Part shown: positions 18,447 through 43,659 of the stretch, in pieces | Layout: every line of letters starts with the position of its first letter | How positions within the stretch are numbered: the first letter of the stretch is position 1 | Assembly (NCBI RefSeq): GCF_027023865.1 | Contig: NZ_JALVUC010000022.1 | Coordinates: 1 to 64,000 of the forward strand | Length of the DNA stretch: 64,000 nucleotides | Direction of reading: 5' to 3' | Source of the DNA: Thermococcus sp. | GTDB taxonomy: Archaea > Methanobacteriota_B > Thermococci > Thermococcales > Thermococcaceae | Program-made: the position numbers and the translations under genes | The notes under the pieces: generated by a model | Databases searched by the model: none | Seen by the model: only the letters and a program-made list of their open reading frames with translations | Told to the model about the DNA's origin: nothing

Positions 18447-18554
18447 ACCACCACCTCCTGGGGTTTTTAGGCCCTCTCTCAATTTAGAATTCTCTGACCC
18501 TCTTAAAACGCTTTTTTAAAGCTTTGTTTCCCATAAAAAGGTAGGAAATGTTTT

Positions 18555-18571
18555 GTTTTAAACCAAAGGTT
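18555..18571 (+). promoter_or_regulatory. SurR-like operator, mbh-proximal
   Basis: GTTTTAAACCAAAGGTT matches exactly the extended SurR consensus GTTn3AACn5GTT known from Pyrococcus furiosus, where the redox-sensing SurR activates hydrogenase genes in the absence of sulfur. It lies about 33 bases upstream of the mbh TATA element. Confidence 0.8.
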
Positions 18572-18634
18572 TAGGGGAGTTAGGGCACCCTAAAATGTCT
18601 TATCCTTCTGTATATGAGCCTGAAGGGTCTTTTT

Positions 18635-18651
18635 AACCTTTGGTTTTGAAT
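18635..18651 (-). promoter_or_regulatory. SurR-like operator, hyh-proximal
   Basis: Read on the minus strand, ATTCAAAACCAAAGGTT differs from GTTn3AACn5GTT only in the first base and shares AACCAAAGGTT with the mbh-proximal site. It ends six bases before the hyh TATA element, the usual position for an activator of archaeal promoters. Confidence 0.65.
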
Positions 18652-32276: not shown

Positions 32277-32503
32277 GGATATCACCAAACTTGTTAATAT
32301 GTTAAAGCGCTTAAGTAGTTTTCCGATGTGACATTCGATATCTTCACTCAAAACCAAAAGTTAGTAGATTTCTCAAGGGTTGGTATTTTTGTTCTAAGAT
32401 TGGAGATTTCAGTGTTCGCCAGTGGCTCTTTGTATACATTCCTTATCCGGAACGGTGGCGTAATCTTTAAAAACCCATGAGGCTACCCCCGCCGGGTATT
32501 TCC
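32277..32503. promoter_or_regulatory. promoter region between the M20 peptidase and the riboswitch operon
   Basis: Gene-free. On the plus strand a TATA-like CTTTAAAAACC at 32465-32475 predicts a transcript starting near 32495-32500, immediately before the riboswitch aptamer. On the minus strand a T/A-rich CATATTAAC at about 32300 may serve the peptidase gene. No SurR-type GTTn3AAC motif was found here. Confidence 0.55.
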
Positions 32504-32551
32504 GGGCGAAGGCGTCCGCCCCAAATGCCCCCTGTGGGGATAATGACGCCT
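32504..32551 (+). ncRNA. fluoride riboswitch aptamer (crcB motif)
   Basis: The sequence folds exactly as the known fluoride aptamer. GGGCG (32504-32508) forms the pseudoknot with CGCCC (32517-32521); GCGTC (32512-32516) pairs with GACGC (32545-32549) as the main stem; CCCC (32529-32532) pairs with GGGG (32536-32539). Segment lengths match the Thermotoga petrophila aptamer one for one in the parts I compared: AAG for AUG after the first strand, and ATAAT for CUGAU before the closing stem, with the U for the long-range A-U pair at 32551. The changes are U to A in AUG and G to A in GAU. A possible expression platform follows: TCTCC (32554-32558) can pair with GGAGG (32565-32569), the ribosome site. 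Confidence 0.88.
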
Positions 32552-32577
32552 GTTCTCCACTCTAGGAGGTGACGCCC

Positions 32578-33537
32578 TTGAACCCGGAAGGAAGGATAGT
32601 TATAGGTTTAGTCCAGGTTATAGTCGTGCTCCTGCTCTCCCCCCTGATGGTGGGGATACTCAAGAAGGCTGAAGCTAGGATAGAGTCGCGGAAGGGAATA
32701 AGCATCTTCCAGCCCTACTACGACCTCGCAAAGTTCTTCAGGAAGGAAACCCTAATCCCCGAGAAAGCGGCTTCCTTCTTCGTGCTCGCTCCATTCATAG
32801 CGTTCGGAGCGATGCTCACACTGCCCTGGGTGTTACCCATCGTCGGCAACTTCCCCAGCTGGTTCGCCCCAACGGTGGACTTCTTCGGCGGGACGTTCCT
32901 CTTCGGCCTGGCCGCGATGGTCTCGATACTCGCGACTGAGAGAACTGGAAGTTACTACACCGGCATAGGGGCGACCAGAGCCGTTAACTTCGGCGCCTTC
33001 GCGGAGCCGGTTCTCATAATGGTCTTCTTTGGAGTGGCCATCCTCACGGGAACGAACAACCCGTTCCTGATGAACCACAGGATAACGGCAGGGGGATGGT
33101 ACCTTAGCCCGACGCACATACTCATAGCATCGGCCTTCTTCATGCTCCTGCTCTTTGACACAGGAAAACTGCCCATTGAATCGCATGGAAGCAACGAACT
33201 CGGAATGCTCGACCAGGGGAAGGGCCTCGAGTACACTGGCCCCCTCTACGCTCTCAGCACCTGGGCGGGCTACATGAAGTCCTTCATCCTCATGGCGGTG
33301 TTTCTCAATGTCTTCGCGGTTCCTTGGGGCCTGGCAACAAACGCTTCGCTCTACGAGGTTCTCAAGGGGACTCTCTGGCTGTTCGTCAAGATGCTCGGAC
33401 TCATAGGCGCGTTCGTGGTCGTTGAAGAAACCCTCGCAAAGATAAGGCTCTTCAGGATAATAGACTACCTCTCGGCCAGCTTTCTGCTGGCTATAATGGG
33501 TGTCATAAGCTTCCTCCTGGGGGGTGTTGTGCCTTGA
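32578..33537 (+). CDS. energy-converting-hydrogenase-related complex, NuoH/HyfC-like subunit
   Basis: 319-residue membrane protein with about eight helices, homologous to HycD/HyfC/NuoH. Conserved features are AEARIESRKGISIFQPYYDLAKFFRKE near 33-59 and the acidic loop IESHGSNELGMLDQGKGLEYTG near 198-219. Start TTG 32578 lies five bases after GGAGGTGA; GTG 32569 is within the ribosome site. First gene of a tightly packed six-gene operon controlled by the fluoride riboswitch just upstream. Confidence 0.9.
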   Translation: MNPEGRIVIGLVQVIVVLLLSPLMVGILKKAEARIESRKGISIFQPYYDLAKFFRKETLIPEKAASFFVLAPFIAFGAMLTLPWVLPIVGNFPSWFAPTVDFFGGTFLFGLAAMVSILATERTGSYYTGIGATRAVNFGAFAEPVLIMVFFGVAILTGTNNPFLMNHRITAGGWYLSPTHILIASAFFMLLLFDTGKLPIESHGSNELGMLDQGKGLEYTGPLYALSTWAGYMKSFILMAVFLNVFAVPWGLATNASLYEVLKGTLWLFVKMLGLIGAFVVVEETLAKIRLFRIIDYLSASFLLAIMGVISFLLGGVVP

Positions 33538-34160
33538 TTAGCGTTACAACTGAGGTCATAAACATCCTCGGAGTTACAGTGCTCCTGATAGCGTTCCTCC
33601 TGCTCACCGAATCGTATATGCACTCGCTGATAAACCTCATAGCCTTCCAGTCTCTCCTCATAGGAGGAATACTGGCCATCATCGGCTGGGAGAAGGCCAG
33701 TCCCGAACTCATCGTCCTGGCTGGGATTACCATAGCGTTTAGGGCGCTCCTGATACCCTGGATACTCCAGAGGGACATAATGAAGGAACACATCTGGCAC
33801 AACAGGGAGGTCAAGACAACCCACCACGCGATAGTCGTCGGCCTAATCCTAGCTGTGACCGCCTACTTCCTATACATCCCGATATACAGGGCAACTGGAG
33901 ACTGGAACGGGGTCATACCCTTCCTACTGCTCTTCCTCAGCATGCTCGTCATCGTCGGAAGGAGGAACGCCATGGCCCAGATAATCGGCTACATCAGCGA
34001 GGAGAACTCCCTGCTTTACTTCGCGGCAGTGATGACTTCAATGCCCATAATACTGGAGTTCGGAATCCTGCTCGACATGATAGCCTTCGTCCTGCTCGCG
34101 GTCATCCTCGGAGCCGAGAAGCGCTACGGGCCGGTTGAAGTTGAGGAGCTGGTGGGGTGA
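33534..34160 (+). CDS. energy-converting-hydrogenase-related complex, HyfE-like (NuoK-like) subunit
   Basis: 208-residue membrane protein with six to seven helices, homologous to HyfE. The N-terminal half contains membrane glutamates in LLTESYMHSLINL and EKASPELIVLAGI; the rest (REVKTTHHAIVVGLIL, EFGILLDMIAFVLL) is typical of HyfE. Start TTG 33534 overlaps the upstream stop (TTGA). Confidence 0.88.
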   Translation: MISVTTEVINILGVTVLLIAFLLLTESYMHSLINLIAFQSLLIGGILAIIGWEKASPELIVLAGITIAFRALLIPWILQRDIMKEHIWHNREVKTTHHAIVVGLILAVTAYFLYIPIYRATGDWNGVIPFLLLFLSMLVIVGRRNAMAQIIGYISEENSLLYFAAVMTSMPIILEFGILLDMIAFVLLAVILGAEKRYGPVEVEELVG

Positions 34161-34164
34161 TAAC

Positions 34165-35520
34165 ATGGAAGTGGTACTTTACCTCTTAATACTCCCTCTC
34201 ATAGCCTCGCTCCTCTCGTTAGCGGGCGAGAGGTGGGGGAAGGTTCTGACACCAGCCTTCGCCTTTGCAACAGCGGTCCTCTCGGCCCTGATGCTCTACC
34301 AGGGAAAGACCGTCTCAACGCCGAATCTCTACGCGGACTGGTACTCCCTCGTAATCGCGGGCATAGTCTCCTGGGTCTACTTCTTCGCCTCCCTGGCTTC
34401 TCTCTACTACACCGAGGGGCTTGAGAGGCCCTTCTTTGACCTCCGCTACTACTGGAGCTTCCTGTCGCTCTTCGCCCTCACCATGAGCTTCACCGCCCTG
34501 GTTTCCAACCTCGGCTGGATGTGGATAGGGCTTGAAGCGACCACCGTGGTGAGCGCACTCCTCATCCTCACGGAGGGAGAAAAGCGGAACGTCGAGGGGG
34601 CGTGGAGGTACATGATAGTAGCCTCCGCTGGACTCGGGGTGGCATTCCTCTCGGTTATCTTGGCCTACGTCTCTGCCGGAACCCTTGACGTGAGGCACTT
34701 AACGTTCACACCGAAGGAGGCCCTCCTGGTTTCCACCCTGGCTTTAATCGGCTTTGGAACGAAGGTAGGCCTCTTTCCGATGCACGGCTGGCTTCCAGAC
34801 GCCCACGGGAGCGCGCCATCGCCGGTAAGTGCAATGCTCTCCGGAACGCTCCTCCCAACGGCCCTGCTCGTCTACTACAGGATCCTCAGCGCATCCCCCT
34901 GGAATGCCCCGGCGGAGATAACGCTCCTCTTTGGAGTCCTCACGCTCCTCGTCGCTTCCTTCCTGATGGCGTCCCAGAGGTTCGTCAAGAGATTGCTCGC
35001 CTACTCAAGCATGGATATGATGGGTGTCGCTACAATAGGCCTTGGCTTGGCTTACTACCACCCCGTCCTGCTAAAGCTCGTCTTCCTCCTCCTGGCGGTT
35101 CACGCCTTCTCCAAGGGTGCCCTCTTCATAACCGCCGGGGGCGTCATGCGGGCCTATAGAACGCACGAAATAGGGGGGATAAGGGGCCTAATGAACTCGA
35201 ACCCCATGAGCGGCCTATCACTGGTCCTCTCCGCCCTGTCCGTTACTGGAAGCCCTCCTTTCGGGACGTTCATAGCGGAACTTGGAATAATAGGCGTTGC
35301 CCTGTCGAGGAGCTACTGGTGGGCGCTCTTCATAGGGACTGGCTTACTGCTGTCGTTCCTGGCTTTGAACTGGCACTCAGCTAAGATGGCCTTTGGAGAA
35401 GGAGAGAAGCGGAAGGTTCCCACGGGAGAGGGGATCATAGTGCTCACTATGACCTTAACCGCCCTTGGGATAAGCCTCTACGCGTGGTATCTTATCGTTA
35501 CGGGAGGTCTGGTAGTATGA
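34165..35520 (+). CDS. energy-converting-hydrogenase-related complex, HyfF/NuoN-like antiporter subunit
   Basis: 451-residue polytopic antiporter-type subunit with about 13 helices. Proton-path elements are present: Glu in GWMWIGLEATTVVSALL near 117-133, Lys/His in GFGTKVGLFPMHGWLPDAHGSAPS near 194-217, KRLLAYSSMDMMGV near 273-286 and a Lys in HAFSKGALF near 312-320. ATG 34165 follows GGTGAT. Likely an ion-translocating part of the complex. Confidence 0.9.
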   Translation: MEVVLYLLILPLIASLLSLAGERWGKVLTPAFAFATAVLSALMLYQGKTVSTPNLYADWYSLVIAGIVSWVYFFASLASLYYTEGLERPFFDLRYYWSFLSLFALTMSFTALVSNLGWMWIGLEATTVVSALLILTEGEKRNVEGAWRYMIVASAGLGVAFLSVILAYVSAGTLDVRHLTFTPKEALLVSTLALIGFGTKVGLFPMHGWLPDAHGSAPSPVSAMLSGTLLPTALLVYYRILSASPWNAPAEITLLFGVLTLLVASFLMASQRFVKRLLAYSSMDMMGVATIGLGLAYYHPVLLKLVFLLLAVHAFSKGALFITAGGVMRAYRTHEIGGIRGLMNSNPMSGLSLVLSALSVTGSPPFGTFIAELGIIGVALSRSYWWALFIGTGLLLSFLALNWHSAKMAFGEGEKRKVPTGEGIIVLTMTLTALGISLYAWYLIVTGGLVV

Positions 35521-36722
35521 AGGCTCTTTCCGCTGTGTTCAGGAAGGGCGGGAAGTATCTGACGGTCTGGCTCGACTACGAAAGCGGTGAGGCCGAGCTT
35601 GAGTTCACGGACTCGCTCCCGGGTAGGATGATAGCGCCTGCCCTCATCGGCGAGACCGAGCCTTACATGAGGATACCCCCGGGGACGAACGCGGTTCCGC
35701 TGACCTTTGGGCCGGCCGCGGGTGGCCTTGGTCAGGCCGGGGCCTTCGAGATACTAACCTACGGCGAGAGGATAGTGGCGATAAGGCCGGTCTACGGCTA
35801 CAAGGGACGCGGGCTGGAGAAGATGATGCTCGACCGTCCTATTGGGGAGTCGATAGCTGTCCTCGAGAGGGCAGCGGGGAACTTCGCAATGGCCTACACC
35901 TACGCCTTTCTGAAGGCGGTCGAGGCCAACCCTGACGAGGACGTCTGGGATGTTAGAAAGGCTCTCCTCGAACTTGAGAGGCTCTACAACCACTTCAACG
36001 CGATACACAAGTTAGCGGGAGCCGCATCCCAGAAGGTCGCCACCATGCACTTCCACGCCCTTGAGGAGGACGTCCTCAGGGTATTCAGCAGGCTGACCGG
36101 CCATCGCTATGGCTTCGGCTCAAACCTGCCTGGTGAGGTCAGGATTCTTGAACCGGAGGTCATTCAGAGACTTGGGAGGATTAAGGCGGAGTTCCGCTCG
36201 CTAACCGATGAACTGCTGGAGAGCAAGATATTCATAGACCGTCTCCACACGACCTGCAGACTCACGAGGGAAGATGTCATCGAACTTGATGCAGTGGGCA
36301 TAGCGGCTAGGGGGTCCTCCGTTCCTAGGGATGTCAGGGCTTTCGACAGGTTTTACTCCTACAAACCGGTAACCTACGAGGACGGAGACGCTCTGGCGAG
36401 GTTAATGGTCAGGATCGAGGAAGTGGAGAGGTCCTTCGAGATCATTGAAGGTTCGGACGTTAGAAGCGTCAGCTCCGACCCGTCCCTGAAGGACGGGCTG
36501 AACCTTGGATTAGCTGAAGCATCTCACGGGGACGTTCTAGTTCTCGCGGAGCTTGAGAACGAAAGGCTGAGGTGGATAGGCCTCAGGGGCGCTTCCCGCA
36601 TCAACTACATCGCCTTCGCAAAGGGAATAACCGGGAACATCTTCACGGACTTCCCGTTTGGCTTAGAGAGCTTTGGCCTGAACTTTGCCGATGCTGACCT
36701 TTGGCAGGGGGGTGAGGACTGA
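35517..36722 (+). CDS. energy-converting-hydrogenase-related large subunit lacking the Ni-Fe site
   Basis: 401-residue homolog of HycE/HyfG/NuoD without the NuoC-like N-terminal domain. The fold signature is clear (LTFGPAAGGLGQAGAFEI near 62-79, GYKGRGLEKMM near 94-104, a NuoD-like core). Where hydrogenases have CxxC, this protein has A120 and F123 (ERAAGNFAM) and, near the C-terminus, N389 and D392 (SFGLNFADAD). All four Ni-Fe cysteines are gone, so it cannot be a [NiFe] hydrogenase. It resembles the Ehr class between group 4 hydrogenases and complex I. Frame and overlaps are intact, so it is not a pseudogene. Its redox partner is unknown. Confidence 0.88.
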   Translation: MKALSAVFRKGGKYLTVWLDYESGEAELEFTDSLPGRMIAPALIGETEPYMRIPPGTNAVPLTFGPAAGGLGQAGAFEILTYGERIVAIRPVYGYKGRGLEKMMLDRPIGESIAVLERAAGNFAMAYTYAFLKAVEANPDEDVWDVRKALLELERLYNHFNAIHKLAGAASQKVATMHFHALEEDVLRVFSRLTGHRYGFGSNLPGEVRILEPEVIQRLGRIKAEFRSLTDELLESKIFIDRLHTTCRLTREDVIELDAVGIAARGSSVPRDVRAFDRFYSYKPVTYEDGDALARLMVRIEEVERSFEIIEGSDVRSVSSDPSLKDGLNLGLAEASHGDVLVLAELENERLRWIGLRGASRINYIAFAKGITGNIFTDFPFGLESFGLNFADADLWQGGED

Positions 36723-37327
36723 TGTGGATGATCAAAGGCCTTCGGAAGGGCGTCATAACGAGCGATTATCCAGGAAAGGTGAGTGAGGAAGAGCTTTCGC
36801 CGAGCTTTCCCCTAAAAGCCCCCGAGGAGTGTCCCTTCGGTGCCCTTGAAAACGGAAGCTTCGACCCCAAGAAGTGCATCTCCTGCCGTCTCTGCAATGC
36901 CCCCTTCGGAAGGAAGCTCGACGTTGATGAGGTTAAAAATCCCCTCAACTTCAGGCGCTCGCTCCATGTCCTCTTCCTTGACGTTGGAACCTGCCACGCC
37001 TGCAACCGCGAAGTCGCACAGCTTCACAGCCCATACTACGACGTCCACAGGCTCGGAATATTCTTCACGCCCACGCCGAAGCACGCTGATGTTCTCCTCG
37101 TCGCGGGCTGTCCGACCGACGGTATGATACCAGTTCTAAAGGAGGCCTACGAGCTGATGCCTGAACCGAAGCGCGTCCTCGTCCTCGGCGCCTGCTCCAA
37201 CGGTGCCTTCTGCGGGAGAAAGGTCGAGGATTTTGTCCCGGTGGATGGCTATGTGGCGGGCTGTCCGCCGAACCCGGTTCAGATAATCCGGGGCCTCCTT
37301 AAGATGGCCGGGAGGGATGTGGAATGA
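36722..37327 (+). CDS. energy-converting-hydrogenase-related small subunit with N-terminal Fe-S motif
   Basis: 201-residue NuoB/HycG homolog. N2-type cluster ligands are C91 and C94 (TCHACNRE), C158 (GACSNG) and C181 (AGCPPNP). Before them lies a separate cysteine set, C37 (ECPFGAL) and C52/C55/C58 (KCISCRLC), which would hold one extra [4Fe-4S] cluster and may replace the missing polyferredoxin subunit. Start ATG 36722 overlaps the upstream TGA. It shows that the complex still moves single electrons. Confidence 0.88.
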   Translation: MWMIKGLRKGVITSDYPGKVSEEELSPSFPLKAPEECPFGALENGSFDPKKCISCRLCNAPFGRKLDVDEVKNPLNFRRSLHVLFLDVGTCHACNREVAQLHSPYYDVHRLGIFFTPTPKHADVLLVAGCPTDGMIPVLKEAYELMPEPKRVLVLGACSNGAFCGRKVEDFVPVDGYVAGCPPNPVQIIRGLLKMAGRDVE

Positions 37328-39138
37328 ACCCCTACTATCTGATAACCTTGGGTTTCGCCCTGGCATCACTCGTCTCACCAGCATCGAGGAAGCTCACCTA
37401 CTGGCTCAACGTGGCCCTATCATCGGCCCTGCTCTACTTCCTCCTCTTCCAGCCCGGGAGCATAGGTGGAACAGACAGGTACTTCATGCTGATCTCGGGA
37501 ATAGTCTGGCTGACCGCTTCACTCTTCAGCCTGGACTACGACCACTATCCAAAACTCCTGGCCGGCTCTTTCTCGCTCGCCATAGCGGGCATGATGGTTA
37601 TCCTACTCGCCAAAGACGCGGTTACCTTCCTCGTCGGCTGGGAGGTAATGACGGTAGCGAGCTACCTCGGCATAACCGCGAAGGAGAGGGAGGGAAGAGG
37701 TGCTTACAGCTTCCTTGCCTTCGGTGAGCTTAGTGCGCTCTTGATCTTAGCTGGTTTCGGCCTGCTAACCATCCAAAACGGTTCGGTGGACTTTTCAGCC
37801 TGGAAAGCCTCACCGGCCTGGAACGTCGCCTTCTTCTTGGCAGCCCTCGGCTTCTCGGTCAAGATGGCAATCTTTCCCTTCCACATCTGGCTTCCGCAGG
37901 CCCACGGTAAAGCCCCAGCCAACCTCTCCGCCCAGCTTAGCGCCGTCCTCACTCTGATGGGCCTCTACGGGATGGTTAGGCTCCTCCTTATTGCAAGGCC
38001 AGCTGACTGGATCGGTGCCTTCTTCCTCCTCTTTGGAGGTTTGACCGCGATCCTCGGTGCGGCCTACGCGGCCGGAACCGAGTACGTCAAGAGACTGCCC
38101 GGATACAGCACGGTTGAGAACGACGGCGTTTTACTGGCCCTCTTTGGCGGGACGGTGATCACCCTGAACCACGGCAACGTTGATTTGGCCTCGTTCACGT
38201 TCTTAGCTCTGCTCTTCTTTGCCTTCGCCCACAGCGTATCAAAGGGCCTGCTCTTCCTTGTGGCAGGGAGGCTGGAGAACGGCACCGGGAGGTTCCCCGA
38301 GGTCGTCCACGGCAGACTCTCACTCCTTGGCGTCATAGCCGGCTACGCCTCGGCGTTAAGCCTCGCTGGGATTCCCCCATTCCCGGGATTCCTCGGTGAG
38401 TGGCTCGGTATAGAGAGCCTCCTCCAGAGCTTCAAGATACCCGACCCTGGACTCAAGGTTCTCATGATGCTCGTGGGTTCACTCGTGGCTTTGACGGCTG
38501 GAATAGCCGGGGTTGCGATGAGCAAGATAATAACGCAGGGGGCCCAGAGGGCGGGAGGAAAGAATGGTTATTCAGTGGAGGATATCGGCTATGCCTTCTC
38601 CGTGGCGGTCCTCTTTACGGTCGGTATTGTACCGGGGCTTCTCTTCCGCCTCATAAACGCCCCAATGGAAGCTTTAACAGGTCAGAAGGCGACTGACTTC
38701 CTCGGCGGTGTGCTCGGAATAAAGGAGGGCTTCCTCGTCGTTGCAAAGGGTTTTGGGGGAATCTCCCCGACCTACCTGGCCCTCCTGGTCTTTATCTTCG
38801 CGGTGGGCACGTACATCGTTCTAAAACCTTTCACAAAGCTGAAGGCAAGGCGCGTCAGGGCGTGGAGCGGCGGACTTACCAATCCAGAATACCCACCGAT
38901 AGCGCACTCGACCATACTGCTCGTCACTGAAGGCTGGCTCTACGGGACGATGGAGGAGAAAGGCCGCCTCCACTGGCGTGAGAAGGTGAGCACAGCATAT
39001 AGTAGGCTTGCTGATGGTTACCTGGCCTTTTCCGAGTGGTTCAGACACGGGGTCATGAGGGGCTCCGACAGCGTTTACGTCGCCTATATCCTCCTAACGT
39101 TAATAGCCGGGCTTGTTTACCTTCTTTACGCCCTTTGA
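37324..39138 (+). CDS. energy-converting-hydrogenase-related complex, HyfB/NuoL-like subunit
   Basis: 604-residue polytopic protein, the second antiporter-like subunit of the complex. Conserved elements are Glu in FLVGWEVMTVASYLG near 100-114, Lys/His in GFSVKMAIFPFHIWLPQAHGKAP near 178-200, and HSVSKGLLFLVAGRLENG near 303-320. A hydrophilic stretch near 500-570 precedes the last helix. ATG 37324 overlaps the upstream stop. Last gene of the operon; U-rich DNA follows. Confidence 0.9.
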   Translation: MNPYYLITLGFALASLVSPASRKLTYWLNVALSSALLYFLLFQPGSIGGTDRYFMLISGIVWLTASLFSLDYDHYPKLLAGSFSLAIAGMMVILLAKDAVTFLVGWEVMTVASYLGITAKEREGRGAYSFLAFGELSALLILAGFGLLTIQNGSVDFSAWKASPAWNVAFFLAALGFSVKMAIFPFHIWLPQAHGKAPANLSAQLSAVLTLMGLYGMVRLLLIARPADWIGAFFLLFGGLTAILGAAYAAGTEYVKRLPGYSTVENDGVLLALFGGTVITLNHGNVDLASFTFLALLFFAFAHSVSKGLLFLVAGRLENGTGRFPEVVHGRLSLLGVIAGYASALSLAGIPPFPGFLGEWLGIESLLQSFKIPDPGLKVLMMLVGSLVALTAGIAGVAMSKIITQGAQRAGGKNGYSVEDIGYAFSVAVLFTVGIVPGLLFRLINAPMEALTGQKATDFLGGVLGIKEGFLVVAKGFGGISPTYLALLVFIFAVGTYIVLKPFTKLKARRVRAWSGGLTNPEYPPIAHSTILLVTEGWLYGTMEEKGRLHWREKVSTAYSRLADGYLAFSEWFRHGVMRGSDSVYVAYILLTLIAGLVYLLYAL

Positions 39139-42205: not shown

Positions 42206-43659
42206 CTGACCTCTTCCCTGCCGTGAAAGGCGAAGGGTTCCAACGACCTAACCCCTCGCCAAACTCGGGAAGGTTTGAGGGGCTTCATTAAAACCCAAAC
42301 TAAAACGGGTTTTTAACCCCTCTGGCCCGGTCTTAGGCCAGTTACCCCTCCTCTGAGCGTAAAGACCGCCCAAGTTCGGGGTTATGGTTTTTGCCACCTT
42401 CTTTAAGATATTAAACGCTCCAACTAAGTCCGCGTTAAAGATAAGCCCCGTTGCGGGACACTCAAACAATCCCCGAACAAACCTCGCCTCCTCGTGGGGC
42501 TTCCCGCAGACGGGGCAGGTTTTCGAAGTAAAAGCCTCGTCCACAACCACGACACTAATACCATACTCTTCCGAGACTTCTTTTAGACGTTTAATAACGT
42601 AATTGAACCGCCAGACGTGGGATAGGAGGAAATTCTGCTTTTTACCCTTATCGGAGTTCCTGCTAATGCCCTTTGGATAACCAACGACAATCCTCGAAAC
42701 TCCGAGGTGATAAAACCTTTCAACGGCTTGTCTTACGGTAGTGTTAATGTAATTTTTGGCTTGGAGCTTGGCCTTCTCGTGCATTCTTTTGAGTTTTCTA
42801 CTGCTCTTAGCTCCAGACTTGTTGAGTTTTGACTGATAGTCAGCGATAACCTTCCTAAAGTAGAAGTCTATGGCTTTCAAGGGTCTTCCGTTCACGAGAA
42901 AACTCTCACCGTTTTCCACGTAAACGGCCATTAAGTTGTTCACTCCAAGGTCTATTCCAGTCGAAAGGTTACCCAGGGGTTGTCTCGGAATACTAATCCA
43001 CTCGCTTCCAATCAGCTTCTCCTCCACCGTGTATGAGATGTGGGCATACCATTTACGTTTAACATCATCGTAAACGATTTCCAATCGCCCTTGTTTGCCT
43101 CTGAAGTGTATTCTACCCTTGAATTGAATTTCGAGGCGTTTGAATTTTCCGAGACCTTTAAGGATTAGTTTGTTGTCTTCAATTTTGTATTGGTCGTTCC
43201 TGAGGATGATTAAACCTCCTTTCTTGATGTAGTTTGGTAGTTTTGGTTTGAACCATTCCGACAGTTCCCCGTTCCGCTTACTCCTTAAGAGAGAGAAGAA
43301 GCTCCGCCAAGCTTCAGTGTTCTTTCTGGCTATTTGCTGGACTGTTGCCGAGCCGATTTCCTTCTTGAATTCTTCATAGATTATTTTCTCGGTTTTGTTA
43401 AGGTCTATTGGTTTGCCCTCAAAGAATTCTTGCCTGCGGAGGTAGTTTACTCGGTTCCAGATTTTGGCTCCAATGCCAGCTAACTCGAAAAGAACTTTTT
43501 TCTGTTCTTTGCTTGGCTGGAGTTTTACTGTTACTGCCCGCTTCATTTCAGAGTGTGGTATGGTCTTTTGGCTTTAAAATAGTTTGCTTTCCCGTTTAAT
43601 GGCTGTTGGATGGTTTACTGCATCCCCGCCCTAAAGGGCGAAGCTTTCAAAAGAAAAAA
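42206..43659 (-). mobile_element. IS200/IS605-family element carrying only tnpB (IS1341 type)
   Basis: On the minus strand the element starts after TTAC (43663-43660) with a T/C run and a hairpin, CGCCC/GGGCG with loop TTTA (43640-43627). It ends after tnpB with a second hairpin, CCCTTCGCC/GGCAGGG (about 42237-42217), and GAAGAGGTCAG finishing at 42206. There is no tnpA. The two ends resemble the solo hairpins at 3629 and 26749. It sits between serA (3' end) and the fumarase alpha gene (5' end). Boundaries are inferred from the shared TTAC and GGTCAG. Confidence 0.75.
42248..43546 (-). CDS. tnpB: TnpB, RNA-guided nuclease of the IS605 OrfB family
   Basis: 432-residue protein of full family length. 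The RuvC catalytic residues are intact: D199 (STGIDLGVNN), E337 (VVVDEAFTS) and D373 (NADLVGAFN). The zinc ribbon has C344 and C347 (TCPVCG), but its second pair is CPATG, so C363 is kept and the expected fourth Cys is T366. TnpB cuts DNA guided by an RNA made from the element's right end and the flanking sequence. With the catalytic triad whole it may be active despite the odd ribbon. Confidence 0.93.
   Translation of the reverse strand: MKRAVTVKLQPSKEQKKVLFELAGIGAKIWNRVNYLRRQEFFEGKPIDLNKTEKIIYEEFKKEIGSATVQQIARKNTEAWRSFFSLLRSKRNGELSEWFKPKLPNYIKKGGLIILRNDQYKIEDNKLILKGLGKFKRLEIQFKGRIHFRGKQGRLEIVYDDVKRKWYAHISYTVEEKLIGSEWISIPRQPLGNLSTGIDLGVNNLMAVYVENGESFLVNGRPLKAIDFYFRKVIADYQSKLNKSGAKSSRKLKRMHEKAKLQAKNYINTTVRQAVERFYHLGVSRIVVGYPKGISRNSDKGKKQNFLLSHVWRFNYVIKRLKEVSEEYGISVVVVDEAFTSKTCPVCGKPHEEARFVRGLFECPATGLIFNADLVGAFNILKKVAKTITPNLGGLYAQRRGNWPKTGPEGLKTRFSLGFNEAPQTFPSLARG

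What the first reader, a model, noticed from the sequence alone, without database searches (positions are those of the whole stretch)
35517..36722. Hydrogenase-type large subunit has lost all four Ni-Fe cysteines
At both positions where group 4 hydrogenases carry CxxC, this protein has Ala/Phe (120, 123) and Asn/Asp (389, 392). The rest of the NuoD-like fold, the gene overlaps and the five partner subunits are intact, so it is a working gene, not a decaying one. It fits the Ehr class described as intermediates between group 4 hydrogenases and complex I. Without quinones or a Ni-Fe site its electron acceptor is unclear.
Basis: partly seen in the sequence, partly recalled or inferred. Interest (0 to 1): 0.8.

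Follow-up and report, generated by a model that had tools for sequence, protein, structure and literature searches.

The report
Fluoride-switch-controlled complex I-like ion pump
The hydrogenase-like gene has indeed lost its nickel-iron site, and the six-gene membrane complex it belongs to sits behind a fluoride-sensing RNA switch in all 14 Thermococcus species where the front end could be read, so it is most likely a fluoride-stress ion pump rather than a hydrogenase.

Summary
The large subunit (35517-36722) has A120/F123 and N389/D392 where group 4 hydrogenases have CxxC. Orthologs in 12 other Thermococcus genomes agree, dN/dS is about 0.06-0.09, and the six-gene block is intact. It is an Ehr (energy-converting hydrogenase-related) complex; gene content and phylogeny support this.

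A fluoride riboswitch (RF01734) lies at 32496-32559, just before the first gene. It scores 32.5 bits in the window, against a gathering score of 34. It is present in 14 of 14 Ehr operons whose 5' end is sequenced, 12 of them above gathering. Nearly all Thermococcaceae have one such riboswitch, and where it was mapped it lies near crcB; Ehr genomes have a second one. Bacterial Ehr operons with the same riboswitch (Mycobacterium branderi, Burkholderia, Caballeronia, a lone EhrL in Alicyclobacillus) share one clade with the archaeal ones (97/97). Nine other Ehr lack the riboswitch.

Best reading: a fluoride-induced, Fe-S-linked ion pump that restores pH and membrane potential against HF influx. 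The regulation is well supported by sequence. The electron acceptor and pumping are inferred. The literature's "formate hydrogen lyase" behind fluoride riboswitches is probably this non-hydrogenase.

The parts
32496..32559 (+). Fluoride riboswitch aptamer (RF01734)
   Evidence: cmscan 32.5 bits (gathering 34), E 2.3e-7; 37.9-56.5 bits at the same place in 12 other Thermococcus genomes and 33.9 in a thirteenth; leader aligned in 15 genomes
32565..32572 (+). Shine-Dalgarno GGAGGTGA in a short hairpin; followed by a repeat of TGACGCC that also occurs in the aptamer (possible translational switch, inferred)
   Evidence: sequence and folds
32569..33537 (+). NuoH/HycD-like membrane subunit (EhrB-like); true start probably TTG 32578 behind the SD
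   Evidence: PF00146 2.3e-32; conserved with riboswitch
33534..34160 (+). HyfE-like membrane subunit (EhrC-like)
   Evidence: NF008556 1e-11
34165..35520 (+). HyfF/antiporter-like membrane subunit (EhrD-like); pump residues Glu TM5, Lys TM7, Glu TM12 conserved
   Evidence: PF00361 1.9e-43; alignment
35517..36722 (+). Large subunit (EhrL-like), Ni-Fe ligands replaced by A120/F123/N389/D392; His of GPxH replaced by Ala68
36722..37327 (+). Small subunit (EhrS-like): N-terminal single [4Fe-4S] ferredoxin domain fused to a NuoB-like domain with CxxC...C...C; extra invariant Cys C130 and C164
   Evidence: PF01058 2e-18
37324..39138 (+). HyfB/antiporter-like membrane subunit (EhrA-like); Glu TM5, Lys TM7, Glu TM12 conserved
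   Evidence: NF005046 460 bits, at its cut-off

Best explanation
The gene encodes the large subunit of a six-subunit Ehr complex that is switched on by fluoride. Shown from sequence: no Ni-Fe ligands; a reduced but present Fe-S chain (one ferredoxin-type cluster plus the proximal cluster); two antiporter-like subunits and a NuoH-like subunit with conserved pump residues; a fluoride riboswitch in front of the operon in every case examined; a monophyletic fluoride-associated Ehr clade in archaea and bacteria. Inferred: during fluoride stress HF enters as a weak acid, acidifies the cell and lowers the proton-motive force that drives F- export (CrcB/Fluc). The riboswitch raises translation of the complex. 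Electrons from ferredoxin or another low-potential donor pass through the medial and proximal clusters to an unidentified acceptor in the former Ni-Fe cavity, and the membrane arm exports H+ or exchanges Na+/H+ to restore pH and potential.
For: RF01734 precedes the operon in 14 of 14 Ehr operons with a sequenced 5' end. Own genome: only two riboswitch matches, one here and one about 2.4 kb before crcB. MBH and SHI (window), MBX (L049) and FHL (L048) loci have none. Bacterial relatives with the ferredoxin-NuoB fused small subunit carry RF01734 before their operons, beside DUF190, crcB, enolase and diphosphatase genes. Fluoride Ehr form one clade, 97/97. GPxH His is lost in 14/14 fluoride-clade and kept in 25/25 other rows. 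Pump residues conserved. Purifying selection. Literature: acidification and PMF loss are part of fluoride toxicity, and Na+/H+ antiporters are the next-most-common fluoride-riboswitch genes after exporters (PMC11139923).
Against: No expression, fluoride-sensitivity or transport data exist. The window's own riboswitch is 1.5 bits below gathering and has A for the consensus U in GGCGAUGG (shared by about half of the orthologs, several above gathering). The redox step is weak: M. branderi, in the same clade, has lost all proximal-cluster cysteines, so electron flow to the cavity is not universal. No electron acceptor is identified. Only 16 of 61 Thermococcus genomes show signs of the operon, so it is accessory. 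The structure model is poor at the pocket.
Confidence: 0.58

Rival explanations
1. A fluoride-induced complex that no longer does redox chemistry at the cavity: it works as an ion exchanger, or moves F-/HF itself, with the Fe-S arm a relic, a regulator or a structural part.
For: Small subunits of M. branderi (fluoride clade) and Allomeiothermus silvanus (non-fluoride Ehr) have lost every proximal-cluster Cys. The ferredoxin part is reduced to one cluster. Ni-Fe ligands, quinone-site His and Tyr are all gone. A lone EhrL stands behind a riboswitch in Alicyclobacillus, with no other complex gene annotated on the stretches of that plasmid viewed.
Against: All Thermococcus small subunits examined keep the four proximal ligands and a complete one-cluster ferredoxin motif under purifying selection. 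Burkholderia and Caballeronia relatives keep two ferredoxin-type motifs plus the proximal ligands. CrcB is present in most of these genomes.
Confidence: 0.25
2. An MBS-like sulfane sulfur (polysulfide) reductase in which the proximal cluster or nearby cysteines reduce sulfur.
For: Thermococcales respire sulfur; two extra invariant Cys (C130, C164) lie in the NuoB-like domain; there is no Ni-Fe site.
Against: MBS keeps two of the four Ni-Fe Cys and a shortened proximal loop that leaves one iron without Cys (PMC7684303). Here neither Cys remains and CxxC spacing is hydrogenase-like. A separate MBX/MBS operon exists (L049). No SurR-type GTTnnnAAC site lies upstream in 8 of 9 operons. The switch senses fluoride.
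Confidence: 0.08
3. A hydrogenase or formate hydrogenlyase, as fluoride-riboswitch neighbours are usually annotated.
For: Sequence similarity to FHL subunits; 'formate hydrogen lyase' is reported behind crcB-motif RNAs (PMC2864571; PMC11139923).
Against: All four Ni-Fe ligands and the C-terminal extension are absent. No formate dehydrogenase gene in the operon or beside the bacterial fluoride-clade operons. The genome has a separate fdh-linked FHL (L048) and MBH with intact CxxC.
Confidence: 0.02

Closest known systems
Ehr, energy-converting (Ech) hydrogenase-related complexes (e.g. Geobacter sulfurreducens GSU0739-45, ehrABCDLS)
   Same: Six-gene set with NuoH-, HyfE-, HyfF- and HyfB-like membrane subunits, NuoB-like small and NuoD-like large subunit without Ni-Fe ligands
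   Different: Fluoride riboswitch; ferredoxin domain fused to the small subunit with one cluster; shortened NuoC-like N-terminus; GPxH His lost; forms a separate clade from the non-fluoride Ehr tested here
Fluoride-riboswitch-linked 'formate hydrogen lyase' genes (Weinberg 2010 PMC2864571; review PMC11139923)
   Same: crcB-motif RNA in front of FHL-like genes; probably the same genes
   Different: The members examined here are Ehr, with no Ni-Fe ligands and no formate dehydrogenase
MBX/MBS, membrane-bound sulfane sulfur reductase
   Same: Complex I family enzyme of Thermococcales that lacks a Ni-Fe site
   Different: MBS keeps two of four Cys and a three-Cys proximal cluster, has Mrp-type subunits, and a separate copy exists in this genome
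MBH / FHL group 4 [NiFe] hydrogenases
   Same: Subunit architecture; CxxC spacing of the proximal cluster
   Different: Ni-Fe ligands and C-terminal extension absent
Respiratory complex I (NuoB/C/D/H/LMN)
   Same: Fold of large and small subunits; all four Ni-Fe Cys lost
   Different: Quinone-site His and Tyr absent, no NuoEFG, tandem CC of NuoB absent

Membership tests
Ehr complex | NuoD-like large subunit without either Ni-Fe CxxC | tested here: met
   A120/F123/N389/D392
Ehr complex | Six-subunit gene set A, B, C, D, L, S | tested here: met
Ehr complex | Groups with bacterial Ehr apart from hydrogenases and NuoD | tested here: met
   100/100 branch; the bacterial rows were called Ehr by gene content and lost ligands
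Ehr complex | Groups with the founding Geobacter EhrL | not tested
Fluoride riboswitch regulon | RF01734 aptamer in the 5' leader | tested here: met
   32.5 bits in window, just below gathering; above gathering in 12 of 14 operons
Fluoride riboswitch regulon | Fluoride changes expression | not testable with these tools
   needs experiment
Group 4 [NiFe] hydrogenase / FHL | Two CxxC motifs binding Ni-Fe | tested here: not met
Group 4 [NiFe] hydrogenase / FHL | C-terminal extension beyond the second CxxC | tested here: not met
   protein ends ADADLWQGGED
Group 4 [NiFe] hydrogenase / FHL | Formate dehydrogenase in the operon (FHL) | tested here: not met
MBS | Two residual Ni-Fe Cys and shortened proximal-cluster loop | tested here: not met
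Complex I | Quinone-site His (GPxH) and Tyr in the NuoD subunit | tested here: not met
   Ala68, Gly121
Complex I | Quinone available | tested here: not met
   no PF02621 or TIGR00173 match in the genome; genome 98.7% complete

The most novel reading that the evidence does not exclude
The fluoride-clade Ehr is itself a fluoride (or HF) exporter: a complex I-like machine whose former Ni-Fe/quinone cavity and membrane arm move F- outward, driven by ferredoxin oxidation or by ion exchange. That would be a primary fluoride pump unlike the known Fluc channels and CLC-F antiporters.
Probability: 0.1. Interest if true: 0.95.

Novelty: new variant of a known kind. Interest (0 to 1): 0.74.

Why it matters
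Ehr complexes are widespread relatives of complex I with no known function. A monophyletic Ehr subfamily in archaea and several bacterial phyla tied to the fluoride riboswitch gives a concrete handle on what at least some of them do. It also suggests that the 'formate hydrogen lyase' repeatedly listed in the fluoride regulon is a misannotation. It makes a direct test possible: does a complex I-like pump protect cells against fluoride?

Tried and rejected
Functional link to the adjacent malic enzyme and fumarase genes: rejected, as the neighbours are not conserved in other species. SurR (sulfur) control: the two-part SurR-type pattern has no match near the operon in the window, and only one of nine upstream regions has a GTTnnnAAC. 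Scan of named genomes: only Thermococcus orthologs plus one ordinary Chloroflexota NuoD. Bacterial Ehr were therefore reached through plasmid records, which biases taxon sampling. Structure prediction: folds confirmed as HycE/NuoD/MbhL-like and NuoB/HycG/MbhJ-like, but pLDDT is below 50 for residues 360-401 and for 66-75 and 259-276, so the former Ni-Fe pocket could not be examined. Extra invariant Cys in the small subunit: C130 takes the column of an Arg in a complex I NuoB, which I recall lies next to cluster N2 (own knowledge). A six-Cys cluster or a redox disulfide is possible but could not be tested without coordinates. No held paper found linked Ehr with fluoride.

Full report
WHAT WAS CHECKED. 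The ORF at 35517-36722 encodes a 401-residue NuoD/49-kDa-like protein. Aligned with the own-genome MBH and FHL large subunits, other Thermococcales group 4 hydrogenases, E. coli HycE, MBX and NuoD, its residues at the four Ni-Fe cysteine positions are A120, F123, N389 and D392. The C-terminal extension that hydrogenases carry beyond the second CxxC is missing too. Orthologs of 57-97% identity occur in 12 other Thermococcus genomes and in no other genus of the 115 genomes of the phylum searched. In the 11-sequence alignment F123, N389 and D392 are invariant and position 120 varies. dN/dS for L, S and HyfB is 0.06-0.10. The gene is functional.

THE COMPLEX. The six genes are NuoH-like, HyfE-like, HyfF-like, large, small and HyfB-like, in the same order in the orthologs wherever contigs allow. 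The flanking malic enzyme and fumarase genes are not conserved. The small subunit is a fusion: an N-terminal ferredoxin domain with C37 and C52/C55/C58, then a NuoB-like domain with C91xxC94, C158 and C181. By ferredoxin logic the four N-terminal Cys make one cluster, the one equivalent to N6b next to the proximal cluster, while the outer cluster is lost (inference). Both antiporter-like subunits keep the Glu of TM5, Lys of TM7 and Glu of TM12 used by complex I antiporter subunits; the TM8 Lys is not aligned. The same genome has MBH and SHI (window), MBX/MBS (L049) and an fdh-linked FHL (L048), so the complex is an addition, not a substitute.

NEITHER HYDROGENASE, NOR COMPLEX I, NOR MBS. Ni-Fe ligands are absent. 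The complex I quinone-site His (GPxH) is Ala68 and the Tyr position is Gly121. The menaquinone families tested are absent from a 98.7% complete genome. MBS keeps two of the four Cys and has a shortened proximal loop (PMC7684303), while this protein has neither.

RELATIVES. Plasmid records gave bacterial complexes with the same gene order and a ferredoxin-NuoB fused small subunit: Mycobacterium branderi (35% identity in L), Burkholderia multivorans, B. cenocepacia and Caballeronia. Other Ehr with different gene orders came from Rhizobium, Rhodococcus, Cupriavidus, Azospirillum, Methylovirgula, Variovorax, Methylocalor and Allomeiothermus. In a 39-sequence ML tree, Ehr is separated from hydrogenases, MBX and NuoD by a 100/100 branch. 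Long branches are present, so finer joins are uncertain.

THE RIBOSWITCH. The leader before the first gene contains a fluoride riboswitch aptamer (RF01734, window 32496-32559, 32.5 bits against a gathering score of 34, E 2.3e-7). In other Ehr-positive genomes the same element scores 37.9-56.5 bits in 12 and 33.9 in one. In all, 14 of 14 operons with a sequenced 5' end carry it. Eighty-eight of 94 Thermococcaceae genomes have at least one such riboswitch; where mapped against crcB it lies near it. The Ehr-positive genomes have a second one before Ehr. Two genomes in which L was not found (G050, G066) show the second riboswitch directly before the Ehr nuoH gene at a contig end. A third (G051) has it at a contig end. 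The leader is strongly conserved in 15 genomes: aptamer, an SD hairpin, and a repeat of TGACGCC placed both in the aptamer and just behind the SD, which suggests control of translation (inference; direction not tested).

THE SAME LINK IN BACTERIA. RF01734 precedes the operons of M. branderi, B. multivorans, B. cenocepacia and Caballeronia, and a lone EhrL in an Alicyclobacillus plasmid next to two crcB genes and DUF190. Neighbours include crcB, DUF190, enolase and inorganic diphosphatase, classic fluoride genes (PMC11139923, PMC5533749). None of ten non-fluoride Ehr loci has the riboswitch. The 14 riboswitch-led sequences form one clade with 97/97 support, and all of them have lost the GPxH His that the other 25 rows keep. 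Weinberg et al. 2010 (PMC2864571) and a 2024 review (PMC11139923) list 'formate hydrogen lyase' behind this RNA. The members seen here have no Ni-Fe ligands and no formate dehydrogenase, so that label is probably wrong for them (inference from those sampled).

HOW IT PROBABLY WORKS. HF crosses membranes, acidifies the cytoplasm and lowers the proton-motive force, and Na+/H+ antiporters are the next-most-common riboswitch-linked class after exporters (PMC11139923). A fluoride-induced complex with two antiporter-like subunits fits the same need: restoring pH and potential, on which CrcB-mediated F- export depends. Energy would come from a low-potential donor through the two retained clusters. 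The acceptor is unknown. The redox step is the weakest part, because M. branderi and A. silvanus small subunits have lost all proximal-cluster Cys, so some Ehr may work without it. Direct F- transport is not excluded.

VERDICT. Ehr assignment is supported. The added finding is a fluoride-regulated Ehr subfamily spanning archaea and bacteria. No held paper found links Ehr and fluoride, though subscription papers could not be searched.

Noticed in passing
window 18547-18651: Cluster of SurR-like GTTnnnAACn5GTT matches between the divergent mbh and hyh (sulfhydrogenase) operons; the window has 18 matches against 9 expected.
   Followed up: no
L077 9024-9818 and L129 9257-10129: Small subunits of Mycobacterium branderi and Allomeiothermus silvanus Ehr have lost every proximal-cluster cysteine, so electron flow to the cavity is not possible by the usual route.
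   Followed up: partly
L130 7546-9248: A lone EhrL gene directly behind a fluoride riboswitch on an Alicyclobacillus plasmid, beside two crcB and two DUF190 genes; no other Ehr subunit annotated on the plasmid stretches viewed.
   Followed up: partly
window 36722-37327 (residues C130, C164): Two extra invariant cysteines in the NuoB-like domain besides the four cluster ligands; C130 takes the column of an Arg in a complex I NuoB. Role unknown.
   Followed up: partly
L010 / G067:C51:157519-158721: One ortholog has an in-frame TAG a few residues before the C-terminus of the large subunit.
   Followed up: no
G000:C19:220658-220730 (L120): The own-genome riboswitch near crcB is weak too (28.3 bits); crcB is followed by a DUF190-like gene.
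   Followed up: partly
window 42248-43546: A protein resembling a TnpB/OrfB transposon-associated protein on the minus strand; assignment by eye only.
   Followed up: no
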